Part shown: in pieces, positions 874 through 16,743 of the stretch
How positions within the stretch are numbered: position 1 is the first letter of the stretch
Layout of the letters: every line of letters starts with the position of its first letter
NCBI RefSeq assembly: GCF_000488255.1
Contig: NZ_KI530754.1
Location: 124,001 to 188,000 of the forward strand
DNA: 64,000 nucleotides
Direction: 5' to 3'
From: Acinetobacter indicus CIP 110367
GTDB taxonomy: Bacteria > Pseudomonadota > Gammaproteobacteria > Pseudomonadales > Moraxellaceae
The notes under the pieces: generated by a model
What the model saw: the letters and a program-made list of their open reading frames with translations, nothing else
What the model was told of the DNA's origin: nothing
Database searches by the model: none
Made by a program: the position numbers and the translations under genes

Positions 874-3480
874 TTAGACATTCAGCATACTGTTTAAAGT
901 TTCAACCACGTTTTTCGATTTCACCAAGGGCTTCAAGGTTTCCAGGGCCACCTGTACCTGACTGCGCTGTGGTTCATCCAGCGTATACCAGCGTGACAGC
1001 ACCTGCAGCAAACGTGAACCTAAAATCGGGTTCTTTTCATCGAGGTATTTGGCCAGATGGATATAATGCTGCACCCCAAAACTCCAGGTATTTACCGGAT
1101 TCATATTCAGACCACCACTGACCGAACGAATGCGGTTTGGCGTACCCAGATCATAGTCCGGATGCTGGGTTAAGGTATGAATGGTTTCAGCCGTTGCATT
1201 TGGATGGGAGGCCTGTACAGTAAACCACTGGTCTAAAGACAGCGCTTCATCTTTAAAGCGGTCATAGAAATCCTGCAGGCAGGATTCGGCTTGCGGTGCA
1301 TCATTCCAGACCAGTACACGTAGCGCGCCTAAACGTTCTGACATATTGCCAGTATTCTGATACTGCTGATGCGCCAGATCAAAGGCTTCGGTATCGCCCT
1401 GACGTGCCATCAGACTGAGCATAATATTCTTCAGCGCACGCACGCCCATGGCCTGTGAAAACTCTTTTTGCAGGTCCGGGTCCAGACTTAGGTAAGTTTC
1501 CTTACAGAAAGCACCCAATTCACGCGCCAGCGTATTTAACAAGGCTTCACGTTTTTCCTGAATGTCCACCGGACTATAGTGCTGATCAATCCGGCTGCCC
1601 AAATAACCTTCGGTTGGTACATCAAAAATTCGTGAAGCCAGTAACGGGTCCTGATTGACCAGTGCCGGTACCGTGTTTTTCATGGCCTGAAGATAACTTT
1701 CTACCGCATGACCATTTAGCAAAATACGCTCCAGCAAGGTCTGGGTCGCCTGCCACTGGTTAAAGCCGTTGGTTTCATACTGCATCAGGAAGGCCAATTC
1801 GGCATCACTGGCATCAAATTCCAGATTCACTGGTGCCGAGAAATTACGTAACAGCGACACCACCGGTTTGGCGTTAATGCCGCTAAATTCGATAGTTGCC
1901 TCATCCTGATCAAACAGGTACACGCCATCTTTTACGCCATTTTCAAACAGGGCCTCAGATTGCAGCGTATATTGCTCGCCGGTTTCGGCATTAAACAGCG
2001 CCAAAGCCACCGGAATTGGCACGGCTTTCAGGTCTGGATATTTCGGATGCGCTTTCAGGCTCTGTTTAAAGCTTAAACGATAGGTTTGAGTCGAAGCCTC
2101 ATATTCGCCATGTGCCTGCAGTTTTGGAGTACCCGGCTGGTTATACCAAGTTAAAAATGCCGATAAATCAACGCCTGAACCGGCAGTCAGTGCCGCAACC
2201 CAGTCTTCGACCGTCACCGCCTGACCATCATGACGGCGGAAATACTCATCGGTACCCGCGCGGAATTTTTCCTTGCCGAGCAAGGTCGACATCATGCGGT
2301 TAATTTCCGCCCCTTTTTCATACACCGTGGCGGTATAAAAGTTATTAATTTCAACAAAATGATCTGGACGTGGCGGATGCGATAATGGGCCAGAATCTTC
2401 CGGGAACTGATGCGCTTTTAATACAGCGACATCATCAATCCGTTGTACTGCGGCCGATTGTAAATCTTCTGAAAACGACTGGTCACGGAAAACGGTCAAG
2501 CCTTCTTTTAGACACAGCTGGAACCAGTCACGACAGGTAATCCGGTTACCGGTCCAGTTATGGAAATATTCGTGTGCGATGACCGACTGAACCCGCATAA
2601 TTGCCGCATCGGTGGTGTATTCTTCATCGGCCAGCACGCAAGAGGTGTTAAAGATGTTCAGGCCCTTGTTTTCCATCGCGCCCATATTGAACTGGCTAAC
2701 CGCCACAATCATATAGTTGTCGAGGTCATACGGCAGACCATAATGTTCTTCATCCCAGCGCATGGAATGTTTTAACGTTTCCATGGCGATGTGACATTTA
2801 GGAATATCTTTTTCTACCGCATAAATTTCCAGTGCCACATTACGGCCTTCAGAAGTCACATAGCTGTCTTTCAGCACCGCTAAATCGCCGACCACACAGG
2901 CAAACAGATAACTTGGCTTTTTGGTCGGGTCCTGCCAGATCGCATAATGACGCTGGGCATCGACCTCGCCTTTTTCAATCAGGTTACCATTGGCCAGCAG
3001 CACCGGATATTTTTTATCGGCTTCCACCCGGGTAGTAAATACCGACAGCACATCCGGACGGTCCGGATAGAAGGTAATTTTACGGAAACCTTCCGGCTCA
3101 TTCTGGGTCACAAACAGATCACCAGCCTGATACAGACCTTCCAGCATGGTGTTGCTTTCCGGATGAATCACCACCTGGGTTTCAATACGTGCACGATCTG
3201 GCGCATTCTGAATTACCAGCTGTTCAGCATCAAGCTGATAGTCATTTTCGGTCAGTTGCTGACTGTTCAGATGAATAGATTTCAGCTCAAGGTCACGGCC
3301 CAGCAGCACCAGATCACCTTCGGTCTGGCGCTGCATCTCCAAAATAGCATTGACGATGGTGTGGTCTGCATACACCTGAATATCCAGATTAATTGAATCC
3401 ACCAGAAATGCAGGTTTTTGATAATCTTTTAAATAAATAGTTTGGTCTGCTTCAACCACTGGATTTGCTGCGATATTCAT
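874..3480 (-). CDS. pepN: Aminopeptidase N (M1 family zinc peptidase)
   Basis: This 868-residue protein has the length and layout of the long bacterial M1 aminopeptidase (E. coli PepN is 870). The exopeptidase motif GAMEN is at residues 267-271 and the zinc motif HEYFH at 303-307, with the third zinc ligand Glu about residue 326 in LKEGLTVF. The C-terminal half is the all-helical domain typical of PepN. It removes N-terminal residues from peptides in the cytoplasm during protein turnover; no signal peptide is seen. It is alone in its transcription unit, with a terminator at 697-728 and a 660-base gene-free stretch upstream. Confidence 0.97.
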   Translation of the reverse strand: MNIAANPVVEADQTIYLKDYQKPAFLVDSINLDIQVYADHTIVNAILEMQRQTEGDLVLLGRDLELKSIHLNSQQLTENDYQLDAEQLVIQNAPDRARIETQVVIHPESNTMLEGLYQAGDLFVTQNEPEGFRKITFYPDRPDVLSVFTTRVEADKKYPVLLANGNLIEKGEVDAQRHYAIWQDPTKKPSYLFACVVGDLAVLKDSYVTSEGRNVALEIYAVEKDIPKCHIAMETLKHSMRWDEEHYGLPYDLDNYMIVAVSQFNMGAMENKGLNIFNTSCVLADEEYTTDAAIMRVQSVIAHEYFHNWTGNRITCRDWFQLCLKEGLTVFRDQSFSEDLQSAAVQRIDDVAVLKAHQFPEDSGPLSHPPRPDHFVEINNFYTATVYEKGAEINRMMSTLLGKEKFRAGTDEYFRRHDGQAVTVEDWVAALTAGSGVDLSAFLTWYNQPGTPKLQAHGEYEASTQTYRLSFKQSLKAHPKYPDLKAVPIPVALALFNAETGEQYTLQSEALFENGVKDGVYLFDQDEATIEFSGINAKPVVSLLRNFSAPVNLEFDASDAELAFLMQYETNGFNQWQATQTLLERILLNGHAVESYLQAMKNTVPALVNQDPLLASRIFDVPTEGYLGSRIDQHYSPVDIQEKREALLNTLARELGAFCKETYLSLDPDLQKEFSQAMGVRALKNIMLSLMARQGDTEAFDLAHQQYQNTGNMSERLGALRVLVWNDAPQAESCLQDFYDRFKDEALSLDQWFTVQASHPNATAETIHTLTQHPDYDLGTPNRIRSVSGGLNMNPVNTWSFGVQHYIHLAKYLDEKNPILGSRLLQVLSRWYTLDEPQRSQVQVALETLKPLVKSKNVVETLNSMLNV

Positions 3481-10577: not shown

Positions 10578-11801
10578 TTAACCGAAAAATGCAATGATAC
10601 TCTGAATCACCACAGCATTCACAATATCAATAAAAAATGCACCACATAGCGGTACGATTAAAAAGGCTTTGTGCGATGGACCATAGCTATTGGTAACTGC
10701 CTGAATATTGGCAATCGCAGTCGGGGTTGCTCCCATACCAAAACCACAATGCCCTGCTACCAATACAGCTGCATCGTAATTTTTTCCCATAATCCTAAAG
10801 GTCACAATTGCGGTAAATAAAATCAGTACCGCTGTCTGCGCAAACAAAATGGTAATGAGCGGGCCTGCCAAATCGGCCAGTAACCAGAGTTGCAGTGACA
10901 GTAAAGCCATAGATAAATACAGGGATAATGACGCATTTCCGAATACATCAATGGCACGGTCGAAAATATCGACTTTCAGTACATGCTCTAGGAAGTTACG
11001 TACAATCACCCCTGTCCCTAAAGCCCAGACAAAGGTCGGTAGTTCAAACCATCTTCCCTGACTGATCTCTGTCATTTCATTCGCAACAAATATACATAGT
11101 GCAAACATCCCCAAAGTCGACACTGCATTACTGGCTGTAATCAACCGGGTTTTCTTTGGATATTCGAAGGGTGCGGTGTTGATGCTAGTATCGAGTTGTT
11201 GTTCATTGGTCTCTTGCGCTACTGTCTCTGCCAACTGATTTCGTTTAATCAAGAATTTGGCAACCGGACCACCCACAAGCCCACCAATAACCAAACCAAA
11301 AGTAGCACTTGCCATTCCGAGGACAATTGCCCCCTGTATTCCATATTGAGTTTCAAGCACTTCACCCCAAGCACCGGCAGTACCATGTCCACCCGTTAAG
11401 GTAACAGAACCGACAATCAGACCAATCAATGGATCAAGCCCAAGTGCTGTGGCTAAACTCATGCCAACCGCATTTTGTACAACTACAAATAGAATGACAC
11501 AGACCAGAAAGATCAGCAGTGATTTCCCACCTTCTTTGAGCTTGGTAAAGTCTGCACTTAAACCAACAGAGGTAAAGAACATCAGCATCAGAATGGTTTG
11601 AATTTCTGAGTCAAATGTGGCACTGATATTAAAAAATTTATAGAGAATAAAAGCTGTAATCGCTGCGATTAGACCGCCGATTACAGGTTCAGGTAAGTTA
11701 TAGTTTCTAAAGAAGCTAATTTTACTAACAAGATACCGCCCAATAAAAAGAAAAAATACTGCAATCACCAAGGTGCCAAAGGCATCGATTTCATAATTCA
11801 T
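10578..11801 (-). CDS. gltS: Sodium/glutamate symporter
   Basis: This 407-residue protein has the GltS (ESS family) pattern: about ten or more hydrophobic helices, with two inverted halves containing the Gly-rich re-entrant loops GGHGTAGAWGE and GHCGFGMGATPTAIANIQA. It imports glutamate with Na+ across the inner membrane. The longest frame starts at 11828, but the ATG at 11801 (MNYEIDAFGTL) has AGGGA seven bases upstream and matches the family N-terminus. A single-gene unit: no clear minus-strand terminator is seen downstream, and the upstream neighbour is separated by about 120 A+T-rich bases. Confidence 0.95.
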   Translation of the reverse strand: MNYEIDAFGTLVIAVFFLFIGRYLVSKISFFRNYNLPEPVIGGLIAAITAFILYKFFNISATFDSEIQTILMLMFFTSVGLSADFTKLKEGGKSLLIFLVCVILFVVVQNAVGMSLATALGLDPLIGLIVGSVTLTGGHGTAGAWGEVLETQYGIQGAIVLGMASATFGLVIGGLVGGPVAKFLIKRNQLAETVAQETNEQQLDTSINTAPFEYPKKTRLITASNAVSTLGMFALCIFVANEMTEISQGRWFELPTFVWALGTGVIVRNFLEHVLKVDIFDRAIDVFGNASLSLYLSMALLSLQLWLLADLAGPLITILFAQTAVLILFTAIVTFRIMGKNYDAAVLVAGHCGFGMGATPTAIANIQAVTNSYGPSHKAFLIVPLCGAFFIDIVNAVVIQSIIAFFG

Positions 11802-11925
11802 AACATTCCCTATTAGCTTTATTTTCATACAGTTTTAGGAAAACAGTATGAAAAATCAATTTTAGAAATGTTATGCAAGTTATTGTTTCTAGTAATTGTT
11901 TAATTTATGTCCTAAATAGATTCAA

Positions 11926-12147
11926 TTAATACGATGGAATATCATAAACCCAATTGTGTGCTTGCTGGTCTGTCGTACTTTCACAAACATAATAATCATG
12001 ATCCCAAGCATCTTGATGGAAAATTTCCTTTTTGGTATAGGTGACATTTTTACCTTCTTCGACACAGATAAAGCTGTCACCTTGGTCTTTGACTTGGGTT
12101 CCATTGAGGAAACCACCAATACAGAGGAAGCGGGATTTTTTTGCCAT
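11926..12147 (-). CDS. Small hypothetical protein (73 aa)
   Basis: The frame begins MAKKSRFLCIGGFLNG and is rich in polar and aromatic residues, with three Cys. A second overlapping frame (11922-12119) is less protein-like, so this one is preferred. The ribosome site is weak. It lies in the A+T-rich stretch between gltS and the nuclease-like gene. No family is recognised; it may be a foreign gene or remnant. Confidence 0.5.
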   Translation of the reverse strand: MAKKSRFLCIGGFLNGTQVKDQGDSFICVEEGKNVTYTKKEIFHQDAWDHDYYVCESTTDQQAHNWVYDIPSY

Positions 12148-12313
12148 GTATTTACTTCAACTTTTCATTTATTTAAATATACGTGGATTGAACGATCGAA
12201 TGAGCCAACTGTAAAGTTTAAGTTATAAAGTGCGGAGATTACATCCAAATAGCAAACTCAAAATCTAGTTAAAAAATGCAGCATCCAATTTTGCTATCGC
12301 TGCTTTGAGTAAT

Positions 12314-12547
12314 TTAATGTTCATATAGACATAGTTTTTTTTTGACATTATATATGACTTTCATAGGTGGAACATTTTCATATTCAAATTCTTGTAGATT
12401 TGGAAAAGTGTGTTTTAATGTTTTCCAATACTCAACATCATTGTATGTAATATCAATCAGACCAAGGAATTTTTGATCTGATTGATTAAAATTGTGTTCA
12501 ATGCCAATGATTTGGTTTTGAAAGTACCAAAATATACCTATTTTCAT
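12314..12547 (-). CDS. Small hypothetical protein, partner of nuclease-like gene (77 aa)
   Basis: The protein starts MKIGIFWYFQNQIIGIEHNF, continues with an acidic-aromatic middle (DVEYWKTLKHTFPNL) and an ENVPPMKVIYNVKKK segment. The pattern recalls a family of small proteins of unknown role that begin with MKIGIFW-like strands and carry a PRGRVIY-like strand, but I cannot name it. Its ATG overlaps the stop of the nuclease-like gene in ATGA, so translation is probably coupled and the two form one unit. Very A+T-rich. An accessory or immunity-like role is only a guess. Confidence 0.65.
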   Translation of the reverse strand: MKIGIFWYFQNQIIGIEHNFNQSDQKFLGLIDITYNDVEYWKTLKHTFPNLQEFEYENVPPMKVIYNVKKKLCLYEH

Positions 12548-13785
12548 AAATGAATTAATAGATCCAACTCACTTAAACAATCATTAATAAAATCATTTAA
12601 ATCCTTATTATCTTTGATTGATAATAATTTAAAGGCATCGCCCGAAAAGCCTCTTAAATCACCTATAGCTTTACTAACCCATCCGTTAGGAATCTTTTTC
12701 CAATATTTAGGCTCTCCCCATGTCGGATTAAGTTTTAATATATCTTCCAATTTAGTGGAACTTTCTTCAGATAAAGCAATTCCATAGTGAAAATAATCTG
12801 TTGCAGCTACAAATATAAAATTAATGTCTGGCCTTTTCTTACTTTTCAATACACAGCCTATAACATCCCTTTCTGCAGCAGGATTTGAATTACTAATTTG
12901 TTTAAACCACTTTTTACAATTATTAGCTGTGTAGTGGATACTCTTAAATTCTGATGATTTTTCAAAATTTCCCGTTTCTAAAAATTTGCTTTCAACATAT
13001 TCAAATAATTTAAAAAGCAATTCGCCACGATATGCGCTACTATTAAATTGAGTAGATAGCTTTCTGATTGCTTCTAATTCAACAGGTGTTATATCAACTA
13101 ACATCTTTTTCAATTCCTTATTTACTGTTATCAATTCGCCAGTCAAAATTTTTAACAAATTTAAATATTGTCTAATTGCAGACTCTATATTAGGAGTTTC
13201 TTTAACCAAATATAAAATATGATTTTCAAGCCATTTTGTTATATCTTCTTTATAACTCAAACATTGTAAATCTATAGAATTTATTTCATTGTTAGTTATT
13301 AAAAAGTATTTATCATCCTTATTTATTATTTTACCTAAAGATGATTGAGAAGGTTTATTGCCTTGTAAAGTAAGATATATGATTGAAGGTGCTTTTTTCT
13401 TCTCAATACAATAATCATAGTATCTATTTAACTGTTTACTTTGATCCCCTGCATAAATCTTATTTTCTATTATTATCGCCTTATTTTTATTCTCTAACAA
13501 CAAATCAATTTGACCTTGCGCACACCTAAATTCCCTTTTAATAGAAAAGAAATTATCTATCTCAAAATCCAACTTAAAATAACTAATGAAACTTTTTAAA
13601 AATAAATCCTTTTGCCCGTGTGTTCCGTTTGGATCTAATAATTCTTTAAGAATAGGTGTATGTGTAAATACTTCACTACTCCCAACACCTGATAACATCA
13701 ATAAATTAAAAAAATCCCCATGAGCTTTATTTTTATTAATAATTTCTACAGTCTGCTTTATTAACTTATCAATGTATTCTTGCAT
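12544..13785 (-). CDS. PD-(D/E)XK nuclease superfamily protein (PF14281-like)
   Basis: A 413-residue protein with a visible nuclease core. THTPILKELLDPNGTHG (about residues 41-57, with Glu48) is followed by GQIDLLLENK (Asp94), then IIIENK (Glu107, Lys109) and QLNRYYDY (Gln118). This E...D...ExK...QxxxY order is the PD-(D/E)XK fold of the PDDEXK_4 type. Such proteins are often found in defence or mobile regions; DNA cleavage here is inferred from intact residues. The gene is much more A+T-rich than its neighbours, which suggests transfer. It begins only about 10 bases after the acnB terminator hairpin, with no good ribosome site, so its expression may depend on read-through. Confidence 0.8.
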   Translation of the reverse strand: MQEYIDKLIKQTVEIINKNKAHGDFFNLLMLSGVGSSEVFTHTPILKELLDPNGTHGQKDLFLKSFISYFKLDFEIDNFFSIKREFRCAQGQIDLLLENKNKAIIIENKIYAGDQSKQLNRYYDYCIEKKKAPSIIYLTLQGNKPSQSSLGKIINKDDKYFLITNNEINSIDLQCLSYKEDITKWLENHILYLVKETPNIESAIRQYLNLLKILTGELITVNKELKKMLVDITPVELEAIRKLSTQFNSSAYRGELLFKLFEYVESKFLETGNFEKSSEFKSIHYTANNCKKWFKQISNSNPAAERDVIGCVLKSKKRPDINFIFVAATDYFHYGIALSEESSTKLEDILKLNPTWGEPKYWKKIPNGWVSKAIGDLRGFSGDAFKLLSIKDNKDLNDFINDCLSELDLLIHL

Positions 13786-13796
13786 TTAAATACTCA

Positions 13797-13828
13797 AAAA
13801 ATAAGGGCTGATTACTCAGCCCTTATCT
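13797..13828 (-). terminator. Terminator of acnB
   Basis: ATAAGGGCTG / CAGCCCTTAT, ten perfect base pairs with a six-base loop, followed on the minus strand by a six-T run. It lies between the acnB stop and the nuclease-like gene. Confidence 0.9.
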
Positions 13829-13858
13829 TATACCGCTTATTGCTTAATTATCAATTAA

Positions 13859-16498
13859 TTAAGACAATTGAGCAGCAGCAATTTTTTTCGTATCTACATT
13901 TTTAGCAGCATCTGTATATTCAGACATTTGATCAAAGTTCAAGTACTTGTAAATGTCAGCAGACATGCTGTCGATTTGAGAAGCGTATTGTTGATACTCT
14001 TCTGGAGTTGGTAATTTACCAAGAACCGCAGCAACAGATGCAAGCTCAGCAGAAGCCAAGTATACATTCGCGCCTTGACCTAAACGGTTCGGGAAGTTAC
14101 GTGTAGATGTAGACACTACAGTCGTGTTCGGAGCAACACGTGCTTGGTTACCCATACATAATGAACAACCTGGCATTTCAGTACGCGCGCCAGCTTTACC
14201 ATAAATGTTGAAGAAACCTTCTTCCATTAACTGGTGTTCGTCCATACGCGTTGGAGGAGCCAACCATAGACGAGTAGATAAAGAACCACCAGGAACTTTA
14301 TCTAGAAGTTTACCAGCTGCACGGAAGTGACCGATGTTCGTCATACAAGAACCGATGAATACTTCATCAATCTTGTCGCCTTGAACGTCAGAAAGCAGTT
14401 TCGCATCATCTGGATCGTTCGGGCAGCACAGGATAGGTTCGTTGATGTCAGCAAGGTCAATTTCATACACTTTAGTGTATTCAGCGTCAGCATCAGCTTT
14501 AAGCAGTGATGGGTTCGCTAACCATTTTTCCATGTTCTCAACACGGCGCGCCATAGTACGAGCATCGCCATAACCTTGTGAAATCATCCACTTCAGCATG
14601 GTGATGTTAGAACGTAGGTATTCAGCAACTTTCTCTTCAGAAAGTGTGATCGCACAGCCTGCAGCAGAACGTTCAGCAGAAGCATCAGACAATTCGAATG
14701 CTTGCTCAACAGTTAAGTCAGTTTCCATTTCTGTTAAGTCGATCTCTAAGATACGACCAGAGAAGATGTTTTTCTTACCTTTCTTCTCTACAGTCAGGTC
14801 ACCTTCTTTAATTGCGTAGTAAGGAATCGCATGTACCAGGTCACGTAGAGTGATACCAGGCTGCATTTTACCTTTGAACTTCACAAGTACAGATTCAGGC
14901 ATATCCAGTGGCATAACACCAGTCGCAGCAGCGAACGCTACCAGACCAGAACCCGCTGGGAATGAAATACCAATTGGGAAACGAGTATGCGAGTCACCAC
15001 CAGTACCTACTGTATCTGGAAGAAGCATACGGTTTAACCAAGAGTGGATAATACCGTCGCCTGGACGTAAAGATACACCACCACGGTTCATGATGAAGTC
15101 AGGTAGTGTGTGTTGCATTTGCACGTCAACTGGTTTTGGATACGCAGCTGTGTGACAGAAAGATTGCATTACCAGGTCAGCAGAGAAGCCCAAGCAAGCC
15201 AGGTCTTTTAACTCGTCACGAGTCATAGGACCAGTTGTATCTTGAGAACCAACAGTGGTCATCTTCGGTTCGCAGTAAGTACCAGGGCGAACGCCTTGAC
15301 CTTCTGGAAGACCACATGCACGACCAACCATCTTCTGCGCTAAAGTGAAGCCTTTGCCAGAGTCAGCAGGTTGTACTGGAGTACGGAATAAAGAAGATGG
15401 CTCAAGACCTAAAGCTTCACGTGCTTTACCAGTTAAACCACGACCAATGATCAGGTTAATACGGCCACCGGCACGTACTTCATCTAGAAGCACTGGAGTT
15501 TTCAGTTCAGATTCAGCAATTTGTTCGCCGTTTTTGAACGCAGTTACTTTTGCAGCAGCGTGATCGATTTTCAGAGTGATTTCATCACCCATGTTCATGT
15601 TAGAAACATCGATCTCAACTGGTAATGCACCCGCATCTTCCATGGTGTTGAAGAAAATCGGAGCAATTTTACCGCCTAAGCAGTAACCGCCGTCTTTTTT
15701 GTTGGGAATGTGTGGAAGTTCGTCACCGAAGAACCAAAGCACAGAGTTCGTTGCAGATTTACGAGAAGAACCTGTACCAACAACGTCACCAACGTAAGCA
15801 ACCTGGTTGCCTTTCGCGATCAGTTCTTTAATTTGGTTTAATGGACCAACTTCACCAGGAACTTCTGGGTTGATACCATCACGAACGTTTTTCAGCATTG
15901 CATTTGCGTGCAATGGAATGTCTGGACGGCTCCACGCGTCTTGTGCAGGTGACAAGTCGTCAGTATTCGTTTCGCCTGTTACTTTGAAAACAGTCAGTTT
16001 GATTTCTTCTGGAACGTCTGGACGGCTAGTGAACCATTCAGCTTCAGCCCATGATTGAAGTACTGCTTTCGCATTGTCATTACCCGCTTTTGCTTTTTCA
16101 GCAACGTCGTGGAATGCATCAAATACAAGCAGGGTTTTCTTCAGAGCGTCAGCCGCTAAACCACCAAGTTCAGCATTTTCCAGAAGTTCAACTAAAGGCG
16201 CTACGTTATAACCACCAAGCATAGTACCTAGTAAGTAAACCGCACGTTCTTTAGAAACTAATGGAGAAGTCGCTTCGCCTTTTGCAACAGCAGACAGGAA
16301 AGCAGCTTTTACATAAGCAGCTTGGTCTACACCCGCTGGAACACGGTTTTCAAGCAAATCAACCAAGAAAGCTTCTTCACCAGCTGGCGGGTTTTTTAAT
16401 AATTCAACTAATGCAGCGGTTTGAGCATCATCAAGTGGCTTCGGTGGGACTCCGAGTGCGGCACGTTCTTCAACGTGTTGGCGGTAAGCTTCTAGCAC
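13859..16498 (-). CDS. acnB: Aconitate hydratase B
   Basis: This is the AcnB type of aconitase, which interconverts citrate and isocitrate in the TCA and glyoxylate cycles. The N-terminal HEAT-like domain begins VLEAYRQHVEERAALG, then the swivel domain and the iron-sulfur domain with GSCMTNIGHF and PGCSLCMGN; the three cluster Cys are near residues 718, 778 and 781. The longest frame starts at 16549, but a GTG at 16498, eight bases after AGAGGA, matches the family N-terminus and gives 879 residues. It is a single-gene unit with a strong terminator downstream. Confidence 0.97.
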   Translation of the reverse strand: MLEAYRQHVEERAALGVPPKPLDDAQTAALVELLKNPPAGEEAFLVDLLENRVPAGVDQAAYVKAAFLSAVAKGEATSPLVSKERAVYLLGTMLGGYNVAPLVELLENAELGGLAADALKKTLLVFDAFHDVAEKAKAGNDNAKAVLQSWAEAEWFTSRPDVPEEIKLTVFKVTGETNTDDLSPAQDAWSRPDIPLHANAMLKNVRDGINPEVPGEVGPLNQIKELIAKGNQVAYVGDVVGTGSSRKSATNSVLWFFGDELPHIPNKKDGGYCLGGKIAPIFFNTMEDAGALPVEIDVSNMNMGDEITLKIDHAAAKVTAFKNGEQIAESELKTPVLLDEVRAGGRINLIIGRGLTGKAREALGLEPSSLFRTPVQPADSGKGFTLAQKMVGRACGLPEGQGVRPGTYCEPKMTTVGSQDTTGPMTRDELKDLACLGFSADLVMQSFCHTAAYPKPVDVQMQHTLPDFIMNRGGVSLRPGDGIIHSWLNRMLLPDTVGTGGDSHTRFPIGISFPAGSGLVAFAAATGVMPLDMPESVLVKFKGKMQPGITLRDLVHAIPYYAIKEGDLTVEKKGKKNIFSGRILEIDLTEMETDLTVEQAFELSDASAERSAAGCAITLSEEKVAEYLRSNITMLKWMISQGYGDARTMARRVENMEKWLANPSLLKADADAEYTKVYEIDLADINEPILCCPNDPDDAKLLSDVQGDKIDEVFIGSCMTNIGHFRAAGKLLDKVPGGSLSTRLWLAPPTRMDEHQLMEEGFFNIYGKAGARTEMPGCSLCMGNQARVAPNTTVVSTSTRNFPNRLGQGANVYLASAELASVAAVLGKLPTPEEYQQYASQIDSMSADIYKYLNFDQMSEYTDAAKNVDTKKIAAAQLS

Positions 16499-16743
16499 GG
16501 TGTTATTCCTCTTTTTTAAAAAATTACCTGTGAATTCCAGCTTGTTCAAAGCTTCACAAGTAATATGGACTGCAAAATTTTACTAAAATTCCAGTTAAAA
16601 GTTAATGCAAGGAAGGTGTTTCTTTGTGATGCTCATTATTTTATAACTAAATGATGTTCATATTGTTTATACAATAATCAAGCGGAGCACGTTTAGACCC
16701 GTCATTGCTGCTTTTAATCCACTTTAACCGAATTCTAAATAGA

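What the first reader, a model, noticed from the sequence alone, without database searches (positions are those of the whole stretch)
12314..13785. A+T-rich two-gene unit: PD-(D/E)XK nuclease-like protein with a coupled 77-residue partner
Seen: both genes are much richer in A+T than acnB and gltS on the sides, they overlap by ATGA, and the nuclease core residues (Glu48, Asp94, Glu107, Lys109, Gln118) are intact. Known: PF14281-type proteins are a nuclease superfamily often in defence or mobile contexts. Inference: a small horizontally gained unit, perhaps anti-phage or an effector with an accessory/immunity partner.
Basis: partly seen in the sequence, partly recalled or inferred. Interest (0 to 1): 0.55.

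Follow-up and report, generated by a model that had tools for sequence, protein, structure and literature searches.

The report
Swappable defence-gene slot after acnB
The A+T-rich nuclease gene is one of many different, often defence-like genes that different Acinetobacter species carry at exactly the same place just behind the housekeeping gene acnB, while its small partner gene is a decayed leftover.

Summary
Both genes exist as described and hold the lowest G+C of the window (P1 0.275, P2 0.261, window 0.456). P1 (413 aa) is a full PF14281 PD-(D/E)XK protein and a full-length match to PADLOC's untested candidate PDC-S26. It is under purifying selection.

The wider finding: in 80 Acinetobacter genomes read here, the stretch from acnB to a small conserved gene (s73) is hypervariable (207-5980 bp): 5 empty, 75 filled. 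Fillings are mostly one A+T-rich gene, 72 of 75 in acnB's direction, starting right behind a hairpin after acnB. They include OLD-, AbiC-, Mrr-, PD-T4-2-, PD-T4-4-, BovA- and PDC-S46-like genes; 33 of 75 slots match defence families. The other side of acnB is constant. For four cargo families, 27 of 27 near homologues in 175 genomes lie in this slot only; weaker relatives lie elsewhere.

The 77-residue partner is a frame-broken copy of a 111-aa family that also follows unrelated cargo and sits on plasmids. P1 is intact at 7 of 7 loci, P2 full-length at 1 of 7, so P2 is not an obligate antitoxin.

Defence itself is inferred. A published Acinetobacter hotspot survey could not be read and may already list this site.

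The parts
13859..16549 (-). acnB (aconitate hydratase B), left flank of the slot
   Evidence: Pfam aconitase domains; present in 173 of 175 genus genomes
13825..13854 (-). promoter-like element between acnB stop and hairpin (weak evidence)
   Evidence: one 9-of-12 match at 13854-13825, but 13 found against 14.6 expected in the region; a similar element recurs at the same offset in other slots
13803..13824 (-). hairpin followed by a T-run (terminator-like) between acnB and P1; left border of the cargo
   Evidence: fold -21.3 kcal/mol, z -4.3; same hairpin seen in most of 80 slots; only one other exact copy in the own genome; the consensus terminator scan did not list it
12544..13785 (-). P1, cargo gene: PD-(D/E)XK protein, PF14281 / PADLOC PDC-S26 type, 413 aa
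12314..12547 (-). P2, 77-aa frame-broken copy of a 111-aa family, overlapping P1 by ATGA
12223..12313 (-). remaining 3' part of the P2 gene, out of frame
   Evidence: nhmmer alignment runs to model position 331
12148..12222 (-). upstream region of s73, right border of the slot
   Evidence: recurring sequence upstream of s73 in many of the 80 slots, seen by eye
11926..12147 (-). s73, 73-aa conserved gene of unknown function; right flank
   Evidence: match in 96 of 175 genus genomes; no Pfam family; weak phrog_1523 match, E 5e-4
10578..11828 (-). gltS-like sodium/glutamate symporter, next gene beyond the slot
   Evidence: PF03616

Best explanation
P1 is one allele of an exchangeable cargo slot that Acinetobacter species keep directly behind acnB. 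Shown: the site is occupied by different, non-homologous, A+T-rich genes in different species, is empty in some, and near homologues of four tested cargo families occur nowhere else in the genus genomes searched. Inferred: cargo is replaced by homologous recombination in the flanking acnB and s73 DNA (natural transformation or transduction), not by a dedicated integrase, and cargo genes are expressed in acnB's direction, by read-through of acnB transcripts or from a fixed promoter-like element before the hairpin. P1 itself is most likely an anti-phage nuclease: the N-terminal PD-(D/E)XK domain cuts nucleic acid and the conserved C-terminal half (about 210-413) recognises or is triggered by the invader. 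There is no methyltransferase in the slot, so it would be a type IV-like or phage-triggered nuclease and not a classical restriction-modification enzyme. P2 is a decaying copy of an accessory gene that stays at the right edge of the slot under several unrelated cargos; P1 does not need it.
For: Slot: in 80 genomes the acnB-to-s73 stretch is 207-5980 bp, 5 empty and 75 filled, while the distance to the gene on the other side of acnB is 2921-3028 in 61 genomes, sd 16.8. 52 of 75 filled slots hold one gene of 90 aa or more, 15 two, 7 three, 1 five; 67 of 75 have G+C of 0.31 or less. First gene in acnB's direction in 72 of 75 (p 4e-18 against one half). Cargo: representatives match PADLOC or abortive-infection families; with the BLASTP clusters that is 33 of 75 slots, 41 with HEPN, SLFN/NACHT and DUF4062 counted. 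Fidelity: P1 7 of 7, OLD-like 5 of 5, 704-aa family 8 of 8, Mrr-like 7 of 7 at 52% identity or more. Seven genomes with gltS proteins 98-100% identical to the window's carry seven different cargos. Transfer between species: L100/L121 cargo 97% identical against acnB 84% and s73 77%; L073/L115 100% against 97% and 82%. P1: dN/dS 0.12-0.43 over 21 pairs. P2: present or as remnant in 19 of 80 slots, 17 of them ending 69-96 bp before s73, in 6 of 6 P1 slots; full-length in 3 of 19.
Against: No phage assay exists for P1 or PDC-S26 here, and 34 of 75 filled slots hold genes with no defence match in this work (not every cluster was scanned against both libraries). P1 copies in different species are more diverged (69-76% nt in most pairs) than their acnB ends (80-96%), which a fast-evolving, often lost ancestral gene would also give; only L091/L138 (91%) looks recently shared. 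Recombination and read-through are inferred: the promoter-like element is barely above shuffled sequence (8.91 against 8.33 matches; 13 found against 14.6 expected), and the terminator scan did not list the hairpin. Twelve weaker P1-family matches and five distant Mrr-like ones lie away from acnB, so fidelity holds at subfamily level only. P2 coupling by ATGA also occurs at a 36%-identical P1, which argues for some old functional link.
Confidence: 0.72

Rival explanations
1. P1 is an ancestral, vertically inherited, fast-evolving acnB-linked gene that most species lost, and the slot simply collects debris and new genes.
For: P1 copies diverge more than the acnB ends; the 36% relative is also behind acnB.
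Against: Only 7 of 175 genomes carry it; the other species carry unrelated intact genes at the same point; clear between-species sharing of cargo for L100/L121 and L073/L115.
Confidence: 0.15
2. P1 and P2 are a toxin/effector and its immunity or antitoxin protein.
For: ATGA overlap in the window and in L138, and a P2-like 67-aa frame overlapping the 36%-identical P1 by 4 bases.
Against: P2 is full-length in 1 of 7 P1 loci while P1 is intact in 7 of 7; P2 relatives follow unrelated genes and lie on 70 plasmid records.
Confidence: 0.06
3. The slot is a general landing place for A+T-rich genes and the defence-like share is no higher than in any hypervariable region.
For: 34 of 75 filled slots have no defence match here; four of the 80 slots hold an FGE-sulfatase-domain gene.
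Against: Full-length or near full-length matches to PD-T4-2, PD-T4-4, PDC-S46, PDC-S26 and Old models. No comparison with other variable regions was made.
Confidence: 0.2

Closest known systems
PADLOC PDC-S26 (single-gene phage defence candidate) and Pfam PF14281 (PDDEXK_4)
   Same: P1 matches PDLC04983 over residues 2-411 (model 9-403 of 413), E 2e-67, and PF14281 over 26-209, E 1.2e-26
   Different: PDC-S26 is a candidate by name only; a full-text search for the name found 0 papers in the held library, and one for PDDEXK_4/PF14281 with phage and defense found 0
Core defence hotspots cDHS1 and cDHS2 of Pseudomonas aeruginosa (PMC10250203; abstract and passages seen)
   Same: Conserved flanking core genes, variable size, lower G+C, mixed defence systems, suggested exchange by recombination in the flanks
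   Different: Those are median 26 kb and 6 kb, additive, often with mobile-element genes and tRNA or tmRNA borders; this slot has a median of about 1.6 kb, mostly one gene, and lies behind a protein gene's hairpin. That paper's discussion calls short swapped cassettes in Vibrio and E. coli 'replacement islands', which is the closer match
Defence hotspots of Acinetobacter (Yi et al. 2025, doi 10.1038/s42003-025-07459-4)
   Same: A survey of defence hotspots in this genus
   Different: Not held, so not read; known here only from a reference list. Whether the acnB site is in it is open
PD-T4-2 and PD-T4-4 two-gene systems (PADLOC models; tested in E. coli according to recall)
   Same: Found as whole cargo of the same slot in relatives: L096 matches PD-T4-2_A, E 1.8e-151; L062 matches PD-T4-4_A, E 4e-99
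   Different: Unrelated to P1; they show only what kind of gene the slot accepts

Membership tests
PF14281 PDDEXK_4 | Profile match above the curated cut-off over the domain | tested here: met
   94.2 bits against 22.3; profile 1-183 of 183
PF14281 PDDEXK_4 | Active-site residues kept | tested here: met
   D94, E107, K109, Q118 in 7 of 7; E48 in 6, D in 1; residue roles recalled
PF14281 PDDEXK_4 | Nuclease activity | not testable with these tools
   needs an enzyme assay; the P1 structure model was too poor to use (mean pLDDT 48.5)
PADLOC PDC-S26 | Full-length profile match | tested here: met
   E 2e-67, model 9-403 of 413
PADLOC PDC-S26 | Single-gene system (no required partner) | tested here: inconclusive
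   P2 or a remnant at 6 of 6 P1 slots, but full-length in only 1 of 7 P1 loci
PADLOC PDC-S26 | Protection against phage | not testable with these tools
   no assay; PDC means candidate
Core-gene-bounded defence hotspot | Same flanking genes, variable content, empty sites | tested here: met
   80 genomes, 5 empty, 75 filled; constant other side of acnB in 61 genomes
Core-gene-bounded defence hotspot | Defence genes enriched over other variable regions | not tested
   33 of 75 slots match defence families; no comparison regions were examined
Integron cassette array | Integrase and attC sites | not tested
   no dedicated attC or integrase search; none of the cargo representatives scanned against Pfam matched an integrase, one (L134) is an IS66 transposase
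Toxin-immunity or toxin-antitoxin pair (P1-P2) | Partner intact whenever the effector is intact | tested here: not met
   P1 intact 7 of 7, P2 full-length 1 of 7

The most novel reading that the evidence does not exclude
The acnB slot is an integrase-free cassette site: a fixed expression platform (hairpin, possibly with a promoter-like element, behind a strongly used gene) that only makes cargo useful when the gene starts right behind it, so a private pool of single defence genes circulates through this one chromosomal address across the genus by flank recombination, giving integron-like turnover without an integrase.
Probability: 0.3. Interest if true: 0.75.

Novelty: new member of a known kind. 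Interest (0 to 1): 0.5.

Why it matters
A single, easily found address behind acnB yields a different candidate defence gene in almost each species, so reading it across Acinetobacter is a direct way to discover defence genes, many of them without any known family. The slot fidelity makes a testable question of how defence genes are exchanged without an integrase. It also corrects the pairing: the small overlapping gene is a decaying traveller, so experiments on P1 need not include it.

Tried and rejected
Partner as antitoxin: rejected because P2 decays while P1 stays intact. P2 fold: model of a full-length relative from L184 (A. bouvetii) has mean pLDDT 85.1, but Foldseek gave no PDB match at E 0.001 or better and VIA-align a best Z of 5.0 to an ADF-H domain, rmsd 3.9 over 87 residues, which I do not trust; nothing about function follows. 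P1 fold: three-sequence model, pLDDT 48.5, not searched. PDB by sequence: no usable relative of P1 or P2. Viral contigs: no relative of P1 or P2 found by the pattern-based scans; one unannotated phage record with a 25% match to P1. Repeated hairpin as a recombination site: rejected, only two exact copies in the own genome. A promoter of the cargo's own: undecided. A uracil-DNA-glycosylase-like reading of the 238-245-aa genes before P2 came from a remembered motif; Pfam and PADLOC gave no match, so it is not claimed.

Rows dropped: of 96 genomes with s73 I read 80; the others mostly had acnB and s73 on different contigs or an acnB place not listed, and G053 and G127, on one contig, were left out by choice. 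Of 99 genomes with the gene upstream of acnB, 61 distances were copied by hand into; G104 (acnB place not listed) and G137 (partial match) were dropped. Cargo families: 40 distinct slot or P2-neighbour proteins or fewer were scanned per library; the other members were assigned by BLASTP cluster.

Full report
What is there. P1 matches PF14281 over residues 26-209 (E 1.2e-26) and PADLOC's PDC-S26 over nearly its whole length (E 2e-67). P2 has no family at a useful score in Pfam, PADLOC, PHROGs or NCBIfam. A third small gene, s73 (11926-12147), follows.

Genus. The window's assembly is G000.

P1 in the genus. 17 of 175 genomes have any match at E 0.001; seven, the own genome included, have a full-length one: 69, 59, 60, 59, 56 and 36% identity besides the own copy. 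All seven lie directly behind acnB. The 12 weaker matches (28-42% over part of the query) lie elsewhere. D94, E107, K109 and Q118 are kept in 7 of 7, E48 in 6 with D in the seventh; dN/dS is 0.12-0.43 over all 21 pairs by a simple Nei-Gojobori count, with synonymous sites near saturation for most pairs. P1 is therefore a maintained gene. Outside the genus, 11 plasmid records (Vibrio, Arcobacter, Chryseobacterium and others) hold 26-35% relatives and one phage record a 25% one.

The slot. Places of acnB (173 of 175 genomes) and s73 (96 of 175) showed a very uneven distance. I read 80 such stretches. They measure 207 to 5980 bp; five are empty (207-289 bp: L101, L108, L113, L114, L118) and 75 filled. 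52 filled slots hold one gene of 90 aa or more, 15 two, 7 three and one five; 67 of 75 have G+C of 0.31 or less, the exceptions reaching 0.41. As control, the distance to the gene on the other side of acnB is 2921-3028 in 61 genomes, sd 16.8. In 72 of 75 the first gene reads in acnB's direction. Seven genomes whose gltS protein is 98-100% identical to the window's carry seven different cargos: P1, a second PF14281 type, a PD-T4-4-like pair, PDC-S46, an unknown 273-aa gene, a SLFN-AlbA gene and the 704-aa gene.

Cargo. Representatives match OLD/GajA-like AAA15-TOPRIM (L119), putative AbiC (L135), Mrr and PDC-S02 (L077), a second PF14281/PDC-S26 type (L061), PD-T4-2_A (L096), PDC-S46 (L111), PD-T4-4_A (L062), BovA (L082), Abi_C (L127), PDC-M36A weakly (L087), HEPN (L122), SLFN-AlbA with NACHT (L123), SLFN-AlbA (L080) and DUF4062 (L084). 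With cluster members this is 33 of 75 slots under defence or abortive-infection names and 41 with HEPN, SLFN and DUF4062. The remaining 34 have no such match here; four slots hold an FGE-sulfatase-domain gene.

Slot fidelity. I searched all 175 genus genomes with three more cargos. OLD-like: 5 matches at E 1e-40, 5 at the slot. 704-aa family: 8 genomes, 8 at the slot, two of them (G156, G164) judged by s73 or contig ends. Mrr-like: 12 genomes; the 7 at 52% identity or more are at the slot (G084 by its named record, L188), the 5 at 39-43% are elsewhere. With P1 that is 27 of 27 near homologues. Cargo passes between species: L100/L121 share a gene at 97% while acnB ends are 84% and s73 77% identical; L073/L115 100% against 97% and 82%. 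In genomes without s73, I read 40 stretches behind acnB: 17 of 40 hold, within about 4.5 kb, a frame matching slot cargo at E 1e-5, among them G039 with the 36% P1 relative.

Left border. A hairpin with a T-run follows acnB (-21.3 kcal/mol, z -4.3) and recurs in most slots. In 64 slots where my pattern found a hairpin before a plus-strand first gene, 48 have that gene's start within 26 nt of it; 8 plus-strand slots were not caught by the pattern. The consensus terminator scan listed none in the window region, probably because the stem can extend into the T-run; that is my reading. A promoter-like element at a fixed offset before the hairpin is suggestive only.

P2. The family is 111-112 aa in most relatives, found in 31 of 175 genus genomes, in 70 plasmid records, 59 of them Acinetobacter, for example beside a death-on-curing toxin, and in a few other gammaproteobacteria. 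In the slots, P2 or a remnant is found in 19 of 80 (E below 1e-3; reversed sequences gave none), under P1, the second PF14281 type, Mrr-like, AbiC-like, DUF4062, HEPN, 704-aa and unnamed cargo; 17 of 19 end 69-96 bp before s73. Three of 19 are full-length (L100, L131, L138). In the window the 3' third is out of frame; intact copies exist in relatives.

How it most likely works. Shown: interchangeable cargo at one site, P1 maintained, P2 decaying. Inferred: exchange by recombination in the flanks, expression linked to the acnB side, and an anti-phage nuclease role for P1 without a methyltransferase. Not shown: any activity.

What is known. The nearest kind is a defence hotspot bounded by core genes, as in P. 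aeruginosa (PMC10250203, abstract and passages), whose discussion mentions replacement islands of short cassettes in other species. Literature searches for PDC-S26, PF14281 with phage and defense, and acnB or aconitate hydratase with hotspot or defence terms in Acinetobacter showed no paper whose listing describes this site; these were listings only, some of them cut to the best rows. A dedicated survey of Acinetobacter hotspots (Yi et al. 2025) exists but is not held. I therefore rate the site a new member of a known kind, with the integrase-free, slot-faithful reading as the bolder case.

Noticed in passing
G000 contig C14, L140:2234-2569: A second, full-length P2 relative (111 aa) in the own genome, beside a death-on-curing-like pair and a macrodomain-like gene, with transposase- and resolvase-like frames upstream, as on Acinetobacter plasmids; gene names by likeness to the annotated plasmid record or by eye.
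   Followed up: partly
11926-12147: s73 is a conserved 71-73-aa gene of unknown function in 96 of 175 genomes, with a weak match to phage family phrog_1523.
   Followed up: no
L107, L109, L110, L117: Four slots hold an FGE-sulfatase-domain gene; three of these slots have the highest G+C of all filled slots (0.41), so not all cargo is A+T-rich or defence-like.
   Followed up: no
L075:472-3664 (turned strand): The 704-aa cargo is split into 518- and 197-aa frames with a 341-aa frame on the other strand between them, which looks like an inserted element.
   Followed up: no
L134: An IS66 transposase lies in one slot.
   Followed up: no
L186:3887-4906: An integrase-like frame just beyond s73 in Acinetobacter sp. 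ANC 3832, judged by eye only.
   Followed up: no
10578-11828: The gltS-like protein is 98-100% identical in seven genomes whose cargo all differs, although acnB ends listed against the window are at most 91% identical; it may itself be spreading.
   Followed up: no
L190, L191, L195, L184, L187: P2 relatives often follow 238-251-aa genes that match no Pfam family where tested; in L100/L184 the two overlap by one base. A possible separate two-gene unit.
   Followed up: partly
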